Assembly (NCBI GenBank): GCA_030650415.1
Contig: JAUSEG010000034.1
Location: forward strand, 1-41,805
Direction of reading: 5' to 3'
Length of the DNA stretch: 41,805 nt
Origin: a bacterium
GTDB lineage: Bacteria > Patescibacteriota > Patescibacteriia > Patescibacteriales > GWC2-42-12
In this document: one piece after another, positions 26,030-31,126 of the stretch
Numbering within the stretch: position 1 is the first letter of the stretch
How the letters are laid out: every line of letters begins with the position of its first letter
Notes under the pieces: model-generated
The model's input: the letters and a program-made list of their open reading frames with translations, nothing else
What the model was told of the DNA's origin: nothing
The model's database searches: none
Made by a program: the position numbers and the translations under genes

Positions 26030-29000
26030 ATGCCGGAAAAAATTGAACAAATAAAGACTAATTCGGAGCCGAAAAAGCCGGAGATTTCTTTGAAGCCCGA
26101 AGATATGACCGGGAAATTTGATGTTGATGAAATAAAGAAAAAAGAAGCAATTCAGGAAAGAGCAAAAATAACGTTAATTGAAAGTTTGTCTAGGGGATAT
26201 ATTAATTATAGAGAAGAGAATCTTGAAGGCGTGGACCATATTCGATCTGATGAAGATGAAGACGGTAGGTATAACGATAATTATTCAGACGATGATTCAC
26301 AGGATCCGTGGACTGATATACCCGCTAGCGTTAAATTTTCACCAGAAGTCTATGAAGCTGCTACACAGGGAATGTTTATGTGCTTCTCTAATGGAGACGT
26401 TGATCGTGGCCTCAAGATTAAAAATGTTTTCACAATGCCATATGTAGCTATTCTGTCTCCAGAAGGAATCAGCAGTATTAAAAAGGCATTGGAATATTCT
26501 TTGTCACATGACAATACTGACGATGTACTCAAAATTGTAACTGCATTTCTTGTTCCGAATAATATTAAAATTCCTATTTTAAAAGATACCCAAGAGGCTT
26601 TAGGCAGGAACGTAGTGACCACTCTCCTATCTAATGGGTATGTTGATAGTGCTATCGAGGTAAAAGAAAAGCTCTGTCTTTCCGCTCAAATTGTTTCCTC
26701 GCCGGAAGTTCAAAGGGCGGTTAGGGAGAAGATGCTCGACATTCTTTCTGAGGACTATATTGAGTTAGTGAGGGTTATAAAGCTTTCAGATGCTTTTTCT
26801 TTTCCTTTTGAAGACCTTGTAAAGGTTGGTAAGGAGGGAATGGTGTCTCAGTTATCAGGAATATCATCAAGAAATCGTCGCACATCTTACCGTAATGATT
26901 ATCGAAACGCCCTGAGAATTAAGGAAGAACTTAAACTTCCGGACGAAGTTCTTCTCTCTCCAGAGGTGCAAGATGCGGCAAGAGATACGGTTGCGAGACT
27001 GCTGTCAGATGGGTCAGCAGAAGATGCGAAGAATGTCCTAGACAAATTTTCTCTTTCCGCGAGTGCCCTTGCATCTCCAGAAATTCAGCAAGCAGCAAAA
27101 ATTTCAATAATCAGGTGTTTGAATAGCGATGCTTATGATGTTGTTAAGGACGCCCTGAATATAAAAAGCACATTCGCAGTTTCTGATGAGACTTTTACCT
27201 CTCCAGAGATTCAAGGCGCGGCTAAAAAGATAGTGGTCACTATATTGTCCAAAGGAAACTATAGCTATATTGAGTCTGCGGTTGAAGCTGTGCTAGAAAT
27301 TAAGAAAAAGTTTTTGCTATCAGCAGAAGAAGTGCAGAATGCGGCTAAAGAAGGAGTGAGGTATCGCTTGTCTGACGGGGATGTAAGGAGAGCTGTTGAA
27401 ATCAGAGATAAGTTTGCGGTTCCGGTTGATTTTGTTTCAACCCCAGAGATTCAAAATGCGGCAAAGGTTGGTATGATTAAATGTTTATCAAAAGGAGAAG
27501 CTGATAAAGCCGTCAAAATAAAAGACCAGTTTTCAATTCCTTCTGAATTCTTTCTGTCACCGGAAATCCAAAAAGCTGCAAAAGGAGCAATTGTAAATCA
27601 AGTTTCAAGTGCATACATTGATGATAATTATTTTAAGCGGATCGAAGAGATTAGAGATAAGTTTTCAGTTTCCACTGAGTTTATTTCGTCTCCCGAAACT
27701 CAACAGGCGGCTAAAGATAGAGTAATTAAATGTTTGCAGGGAGAGGGCGATAGATTTACTAGACGTCTTCATGATGCCATTCGAATTAAGGATGAAATTC
27801 CACTTTCGGCGGAAGTTGTATCTTCCCCGGAGATTCAAAATGCCGCCAAAATATTCATAGTGAATGAACTGTCAAAGGGGAATATCAATGAATCTCGAAA
27901 AACCCAAGGCCGATTTGCCGTGCTTCCCGAACTCATGCTACAAGCCGCCAAGGAGGGGATGATGGCTTTACTACGTAACGGAAATATTTATGAAGCCAGT
28001 AATGTAAAAGGTGAATTTTCTATTACGACGGAATCAATTTCTTCTCCCGATGTTCAAGAGGCAACAAAAAAAGGAGTAGCGAAGTGTCTAGCGGATGGAG
28101 AGGTTGAGCGCGCTCTGGAAATGCAAGAAAAATTCTTGCTTCCTATTGAGGTGATGATGCAAACTGCTAAGGAAGAAATGATAAAAGATTTATTGTTTGG
28201 AACTAATAAAATTGATATTGCAGTCAAAATAAAAAATGGATTCCATTTTTCTGCTGAAATTATTTCTTCTGTTGAAGTCCAGGAAGCGGCTAAAAAAGGA
28301 ATGCTGGCTTGGGTATTGAACGGATATGTTGATAGGGAATATTTTAGTCGTATCGCTGCAATCAGAGAGGAATTTTCTCTTCCCACCGATTTTATCTCTT
28401 CCCCAGAGGTTCAAAGCGCCGCAAAAGCCGGAATAGTTAAATGTTTATCAATTGAAAATATAGATTATGCTTTAAAAATCAGAGATGTATTTTCTCTTTC
28501 AAATGATGATACTGAAAAAGCCGCTACGGAAGGAATGCTCGCTCGACTTACGAGTTCTAAGCGCGGTGATAAATTGATTGACGACGCAATAAAAATTAAG
28601 GACAGTTTTTCTCTTTCGGCTGAAGCCTGCCGAAAAGTTGCTAAAGAAGCTATGTCACAGAAGTTGGAGAGTGGTGGTATTGAATACGCAATAAAAATAC
28701 AAGAGCAATTCGCTCTTTCTGCTGGAGATATATCGGAAGCTTCAAAAAAAGCTTTTTTGAAATGTTTAGCTGAAAATAAAACGGAAACGGCAGAGAAAAT
28801 CAGAGAAAAATTCAAAGTAAGCGTTAATAGTGAAGATATATTCGAGGTTATTCCTGAGATACGAACACTACTAGCTTCTCTGAGAGATATTTCTCCTGAA
28901 TTTGCTACACAAGCAGAAAAGACGCCGGATCTGTTGTTAAGTCTTTTAGAATTTAGAAATAACCCAGACAGTATCCTCAATGTTGCAAAAGAAAATCCTT

Positions 29001-31126: not shown

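What the first reader, a model, noticed from the sequence alone, without database searches (positions are those of the whole stretch)
26030..31126. Giant repeat protein ending in a GNAT domain, next to the AbiE pair
About 830 residues of degenerate two-helix repeats, a coiled coil, an unrecognised alpha/beta domain and a GNAT acetyltransferase form an architecture I do not know. It is cytosolic, has its own promoter and atypical codon use, and follows a toxin-antitoxin pair. Candidates: a defence effector with a large sensing scaffold, a protein-modifying enzyme, or a host- or partner-directed toxin. This is the best candidate for an undescribed system in the window.
Basis: inference. Interest (0 to 1): 0.7.

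Follow-up and report, generated by a model that had tools for sequence, protein, structure and literature searches.

The report
Giant repeat-scaffold acetyltransferase-like protein, Patescibacteria
A minimal-genome bacterium carries an inserted gene for a 1698-residue protein in which a long, swappable chain of helical repeats holds a previously unclassified acetyltransferase-like domain, part of a patchy family of large proteins that probably bind specific partners and chemically modify them, rather than a demonstrable anti-phage system.

Summary
The gene is real: window 26030-31126 (+), 1698 aa, ATG start supported by relatives that also begin MPE.... It holds about 20 two-helix repeats of 34/39 aa (104-930), a helical core with long helices, an unclassified alpha/beta domain (~1321-1500) and a RimI/Naa10-like GNAT (1525-1698). 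It belongs to an undescribed, patchy family of large proteins found in 9/111 genomes of the order, 32/381 of the class and 7/380 of the phylum, and in none of 12 relatives in its own family. The unchanging element is not the GNAT but the alpha/beta domain: Cys1355, Asp1412, Glu1415 and Gly1451 are invariant in 43 sequences. Its strand order fits a second GNAT fold. The scaffold is swapped: 34/39-aa, 28-aa or HEAT repeats sit on the same effector domain. The gene and an AbiE pair fill a ~6.7 kb insertion at a site that is empty in relatives. AbiE recurs beside only one of about 36 other loci, and neighbours are otherwise mostly housekeeping genes, so a defence role is not supported. Best reading: a mobile, cytosolic, solenoid-addressed protein acyltransferase, comparable in logic to NatA (Naa15 scaffold + Naa10 GNAT). 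Substrate and catalysis are untested.

The parts
26030..31126 (+). gene for the 1698-aa repeat/acetyltransferase-like protein
   Evidence: open frame, conserved family, conserved MPE start
26030..26338 (+). residues 1-103: acidic, probably disordered N-terminus (net charge about -13)
   Evidence: sequence
26339..28819 (+). residues 104-930: about 20 two-helix repeats of 34 or 39 aa, alpha solenoid
   Evidence: autocorrelation, repeat HMM, AlphaFold2
28820..29989 (+). residues 931-1320: helical core with long helices ~1197-1317 (coiled coil)
   Evidence: AlphaFold2; conserved in relatives with other repeats
29990..30529 (+). residues 1321-1500: unclassified 'CC' domain, GNAT-like strand order; most conserved part
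30089..30094 (+). Cys1354-Cys1355 of motif GNYSLCC; Cys1355 invariant in 43 sequences
30263..30274 (+). Asp1412-Asn-Ile-Glu1415 on the predicted beta4 strand; Asp and Glu invariant
30602..31123 (+). residues 1525-1698: RimI/Naa10-like GNAT domain
30872..30889 (+). QRQGIG (1615-1620), acetyl-CoA pyrophosphate loop motif
   Evidence: sequence
31064..31087 (+). YYGDGDDA (1679-1686), matches Naa10 YYADGEDA
24518..31177 (+). ~6.66 kb insertion (AbiEi, AbiEii, giant gene) between a MacB-like permease gene and the DUF4012 gene, adjacent in relatives
24546..25163 (+). AbiEi antitoxin homologue (PADLOC 7.6e-61); not part of the family's conserved context
25156..25935 (+). AbiEii toxin homologue (PADLOC 2.1e-94)

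Best explanation
It is a cytosolic, solenoid-addressed protein acyltransferase carried on a horizontally acquired segment. The repeat solenoid binds a particular macromolecular partner, probably a protein since the solenoid is net acidic. The helical core presents two acetyltransferase-type domains to it: the family-defining CC domain (invariant Cys, Asp, Glu; predicted GNAT-like) and, in this lineage, an added RimI/Naa10-like GNAT with an intact acetyl-CoA loop and the YYxxGEDA signature. It would acylate an alpha-amine or side chain of the bound partner. Swapping the repeat array would change the partner while keeping the chemistry, much as Naa15 positions Naa10 in NatA. Shown: architecture, conservation, repeat-type exchange, GNAT fold resemblance, insertion, patchy distribution. 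Inferred: that the CC domain is a catalytic GNAT with a beta4 acidic base and perhaps a Cys nucleophile, that the solenoid chooses the substrate, and that the product is an acylated protein.
For: C-terminal GNAT: best solved structures are Ard1, RimI and Naa10 (VIA Z ~16, rmsd 2.4-2.9 over ~145 residues); the profile aligns to human Naa10 through YYadGEDA; all 7 lineage members hit the rimI model. CC domain: strands and helices in GNAT order (beta1-alpha-beta2-beta3-beta4-alpha3-beta5); Foldseek aligns the whole model to tandem GNATs and N-myristoyltransferase; Cys1355, Asp1412, Glu1415, Gly1451 invariant in 43. Conservation against L032 falls from CC (90%) to core (80%), GNAT (77%), repeats (74-54%). 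Repeat classes occur in both deep effector clades, at least 3 changes. Variable positions cluster near the end of helix A and the inter-helix loop in both repeat classes.
Against: No activity, substrate or structure is known. The CC loop is modelled with pLDDT near 40, so Cys-Asp-Glu proximity is unknown. The domain arrangement of the 1199-residue model is poorly determined (pTM 0.41). The C-terminal GNAT is absent or degenerate in part of the family. RimI's catalytic tyrosine is not evident. A GNAT-like fold can be non-catalytic.
Confidence: 0.5

Rival explanations
1. Defence effector: the solenoid senses a phage or plasmid component and the acetyltransferase-type domains then inactivate an essential host target. 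AbiE next to it would be part of the same defence island.
For: Patchy, horizontally acquired, inserted at an empty site with an AbiE pair; a second homologue (G024) also has an AbiE pair directly upstream, its genome's only AbiEii; variable repeats; toxins AtaT and TacT are GNATs and appear among structural matches.
Against: AbiE is absent at all but one of about 36 other loci; neighbours are mostly housekeeping genes and no family recurs; no PADLOC hit of the protein itself; G000 has 9 AbiEii genes, so proximity is cheap; some loci keep vertical synteny (G033/G057).
Confidence: 0.2
2. Non-enzymatic scaffold: GNAT-like domains bind acyl-CoA or peptides without catalysis, and the protein is an assembly or regulatory platform.
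For: Large helical scaffold dominates; in many relatives the C-terminal GNAT is missing or its loop is altered.
Against: Strict conservation of Cys/Asp/Glu over all else in the family; intact acetyl-CoA motif in the window lineage.
Confidence: 0.2
3. Partner- or host-directed effector of an epibiont, released or injected into the host cell to modify host proteins.
For: Patescibacteria are inferred epibionts (PMC13059738 abstract); repeat swapping resembles target adaptation.
Against: No signal peptide or membrane segment, no secretion gene recurs nearby, not in phage, plasmid or viral collections.
Confidence: 0.1

Closest known systems
NatA / NatE N-terminal acetyltransferase complexes (Naa15 TPR scaffold + Naa10/Naa50 GNAT)
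   Same: Long alpha solenoid presenting a GNAT of the same structural type; Naa10-like YYxxGEDA end and HxR strand motif.
   Different: One polypeptide instead of separate subunits; repeats are not recognised as TPR or the NatA auxiliary family by Pfam; extra CC domain; bacterial, patchy and mobile.
RimI (ribosomal protein S18-alanine N-acetyltransferase, TIGR01575)
   Same: Best NCBIfam match of the window GNAT and hit by all 7 lineage members; Z ~16 structural match.
   Different: Window GNAT scores 22 bits against a cut-off of 86; part of a giant protein; catalytic Tyr region not conserved.
Tandem GNAT enzymes (e.g. 7q3a MAB_4324, 2wpw, N-myristoyltransferase)
   Same: Two GNAT-like halves in series.
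   Different: First half here has the CC and D-N-x-E motifs and no classical acetyl-CoA loop; preceded by a solenoid.
AbiE type IV toxin-antitoxin system
   Same: Lies directly upstream in the window and in G024.
   Different: The giant protein is not an AbiE component; most relatives have no AbiE nearby.

Membership tests
GNAT superfamily (C-terminal domain) | significant family match and GNAT fold | tested here: met
   PF00583 29.2 bits over cut-off 20.7; Z ~16 to GNATs
GNAT superfamily (C-terminal domain) | acetyl-CoA loop Q/R-x-x-G-x-G/A | tested here: met
   QRQGIG at 1615-1620, conserved G105/G107 in A6
GNAT superfamily (CC domain) | GNAT strand/helix order | tested here: inconclusive
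   order fits, but part of the model is under pLDDT 50 and no separate fold search of this domain was possible
GNAT superfamily (CC domain) | sequence match to a GNAT model and acetyl-CoA loop motif | tested here: not met
   no GNAT model covers this stretch in the Pfam scan of A3 member 1; no Q/RxxGxG/A after beta4
RimI equivalog TIGR01575 | score over curated cut-off | tested here: not met
   22.2 bits vs 86.4
NatA-type complex | Naa10-like catalytic fold with YYxxGEDA hairpin | tested here: met
NatA-type complex | TPR auxiliary subunit recognised as NatA auxiliary/TPR family | tested here: not met
   no TPR or NatA auxiliary hit in Pfam for window protein or L032
NatA-type complex | ribosome association and N-alpha-acetylation | not testable with these tools
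   needs biochemistry
Anti-phage defence system | recurrent association of homologues with defence genes | tested here: not met
Anti-phage defence system | protection against phage | not testable with these tools
   needs a phage assay
AbiE type IV TA (neighbouring genes) | AbiEi and AbiEii homologues in tandem | tested here: met
   concerns 24546-25935 only

The most novel reading that the evidence does not exclude
A phylum-level family of 'address-and-modify' proteins in Patescibacteria: one near-constant acyltransferase-type effector domain with a Cys-Asp-Glu signature, mounted on interchangeable repeat arrays (34/39-aa, 28-aa, HEAT) whose hypervariable positions set the target. It would be moved between genomes as a single gene, a modular targeting platform not described before.
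Probability: 0.3. Interest if true: 0.85.

Novelty: new variant of a known kind. Interest (0 to 1): 0.6.

Why it matters
Genomes of about 1 Mb rarely keep 5 kb single genes without use. A horizontally spread family that keeps one effector domain nearly constant (90% identity with synonymous sites nearly randomised) while exchanging its whole recognition scaffold points to a targeted modification system in bacteria that are mostly uncultured. It defines a domain and two repeat families absent from Pfam as searched here, gives exact residues to mutate, and offers natural repeat arrays with concentrated variable positions. If the NatA comparison holds, bacteria evolved a one-chain scaffolded acetyltransferase independently.

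Tried and rejected
TAL-effector-like reading of the 28-aa repeats: no Pfam hit to such a family in L018/L019, and the related screen (PMC5472282) covered 30-43 aa repeats and its text does not mention Parcubacteria. Phage or plasmid origin: none in viral contigs with two profiles, phages or plasmids. Terminal repeats at the island edges: no direct or inverted repeat of 8+ bases shared by the two junctions. Distinct promoter: not above chance. G060's C-terminal domain as a divergent CC domain: hhalign not significant. Solenoid fold class: only weak TPR/PPR-type matches among helical proteins, not interpretable. Literature: no paper found on this family. Search outside Patescibacteria by genome sampling was not possible; a pattern scan of 84,980 species genomes gave 10 loci, those with an informative name all Patescibacteria, but its patterns suit only one of the two effector lineages.

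Full report
Observation. The reading frame is real. TTG-to-stop spans 26018-31126, and the ATG at 26030 gives a 1698-residue protein starting MPEKIEQ. Relatives start MPEKY, MPEKF, MPEQF or MPENF. Lag autocorrelation of residues 104-930 peaks at 39 (8.4 sd over shuffles), with a second peak at 34; most single units are 34 or 39 residues, the longer ones carrying an extra ...SPE stretch. AlphaFold2 gives paired helices with pLDDT mostly 85-95 over repeats 500-930, then long helices at about 1197-1317. The GNAT match is significant (PF00583). No other library entry convincingly covers the repeats or the 1321-1500 domain.

Genome and insertion. The window is contig C30 of a 1.29 Mb, 45-contig genome that appears to be patescibacterial (small genome; homologues with informative names are Patescibacteria). 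The MacB-like permease gene and the DUF4012 gene that flank the segment are close neighbours in relatives of the same family: 57 bp apart in G007, 190 bp in G012, with a response-regulator-like gene between them in G006. Alignment of the junctions places the extra DNA at about 24518-31177. It holds AbiEi, AbiEii and the giant gene. No shared terminal repeats were found, and no transposase lies in the segment. Whether the three genes arrived together is unknown: the closest homologue, L032 from Parcubacteria GWA2_49_9, lies elsewhere and has no AbiE. In both genomes the gene has lower GC3 than its surroundings (0.33 in the window; 0.376 against about 0.54 in L032).

Family. A profile of the C-terminal part finds relatives in 9 of 111 genomes of the order (the window's own included) and none of the 12 others in the same family, 32 of 381 of the class, and 7 of 380 across the phylum. 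Nearly all complete matching frames are 750-1800 residues. None was found in viral contigs, phage records or plasmids. A few copies look broken: G024 has an in-frame stop and a C-terminal frame break, and G030 keeps only the GNAT end; as these are metagenome assemblies, sequence errors are possible.

What is conserved. Between the window and L032 identity is 90% in the CC domain, 80% in the helical core, 77% in the GNAT, 54% and 74% in the two halves of the repeats, while fourfold sites are 48% identical. In 43 family members four residues never vary: Cys1355, Asp1412, Glu1415 and Gly1451; Gly1349, Cys1354, Asn1413, Tyr1439 and Asp1456 are nearly invariant. The C-terminal GNAT is optional: G064, G071, L039 and L041 end after the CC domain.

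Repeat exchange. Two repeat HMMs separate a 34/39-aa class (window, L032, L021, L023, L114, L122, and G060, which lacks the CC motif) from a 28-aa class (L018, L019, L039, L118, L120, L126, L127, L128, L130); no protein has both. L137 has HEAT repeats by Pfam, L131 looks HEAT-like by eye, and L131, L133 and L135 show other periods. On a maximum-likelihood tree of the effector domain two deep groups are separated by fully supported branches, and both repeat classes occur in both groups, needing at least three changes. In the 28-aa class variability is concentrated at positions 22, 24 and 28; in the 39-aa class at 11, 12, 15, 17, 19 and 20. That is the pattern expected of a binding surface on a fixed framework (inference). 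The window solenoid is net acidic (-11), which argues for a protein rather than a nucleic-acid partner (inference).

Fold of the enzyme end. For residues 1294-1698 Foldseek's best matches are Naa10/Naa50 subunits and tandem GNATs. VIA-align gives Z about 16 to Ard1, RimI and Naa10, all on the C-terminal GNAT. The profile aligns to human Naa10 including YYadGEDA, and all seven lineage GNATs hit rimI, with the window's far below its cut-off. The acetyl-CoA loop QRQGIG is intact. The CC domain shows beta1-alpha-beta2-beta3-beta4-alpha3-beta5 in GNAT order, with DNIE on beta4. From general knowledge of Gcn5 and MYST enzymes, a glutamate on beta4 often acts as base and MYST enzymes add a cysteine. 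I infer, without proof, a comparable role here. The Cys loop itself is modelled with low confidence.

Neighbourhood and defence. Across the family the nearest genes are mostly ordinary and different at each locus (read from their sequences as greA, pyrG, fusA, leuS, secA, atpD, gyrB, dnaX, ligA, queA and others). Of 104 neighbours no Pfam family occurs more than three times and no PADLOC family more than twice. AbiE lies next to the gene only in the window and in G024, with opposite gene order. G000 has nine AbiEii genes and G024 exactly one. Two coincidences in about 37 loci is more than I would expect (rough hand estimate about 0.2), so a weak link is possible, but it does not define the family.

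Verdict. A mobile, patchily distributed, previously unclassified family of solenoid-scaffolded acetyltransferase-like proteins. Mechanism most likely partner binding by the repeats followed by acylation, confidence 0.5. The defence hypothesis stays open but is not favoured.

Noticed in passing
L022:5677-11316 (G060): A 1879-aa protein with about 27 repeats of the window type but a different C-terminal domain without the CC motif: the same scaffold class may carry another effector.
   Followed up: partly
window 31126-31183: Imperfect inverted repeat with a REP-like core CTGGATTCCCGCCTGCGCGGGAATGAC just after the giant gene, at the right edge of the insertion.
   Followed up: no
L130:6350-14705 (G492): Two giant genes of this family in tandem, both with 28-aa repeats.
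   Followed up: no
G000 whole genome: Nine AbiEii-like genes in a 1.29 Mb genome, three of them within 12 kb on contig C18.
   Followed up: no
L018, L019 28-aa repeat arrays: Near-perfect 28-aa repeats with variability concentrated at three positions, outwardly similar in logic to TAL-effector arrays.
   Followed up: partly
L117:4334-5941: A serine-recombinase-like gene lies downstream of this homologue, a possible mobility clue (read from its sequence).
   Followed up: no
window 35945-38260: Subtilase with C-terminal FG-GAP repeats, a likely exported protease.
   Followed up: no
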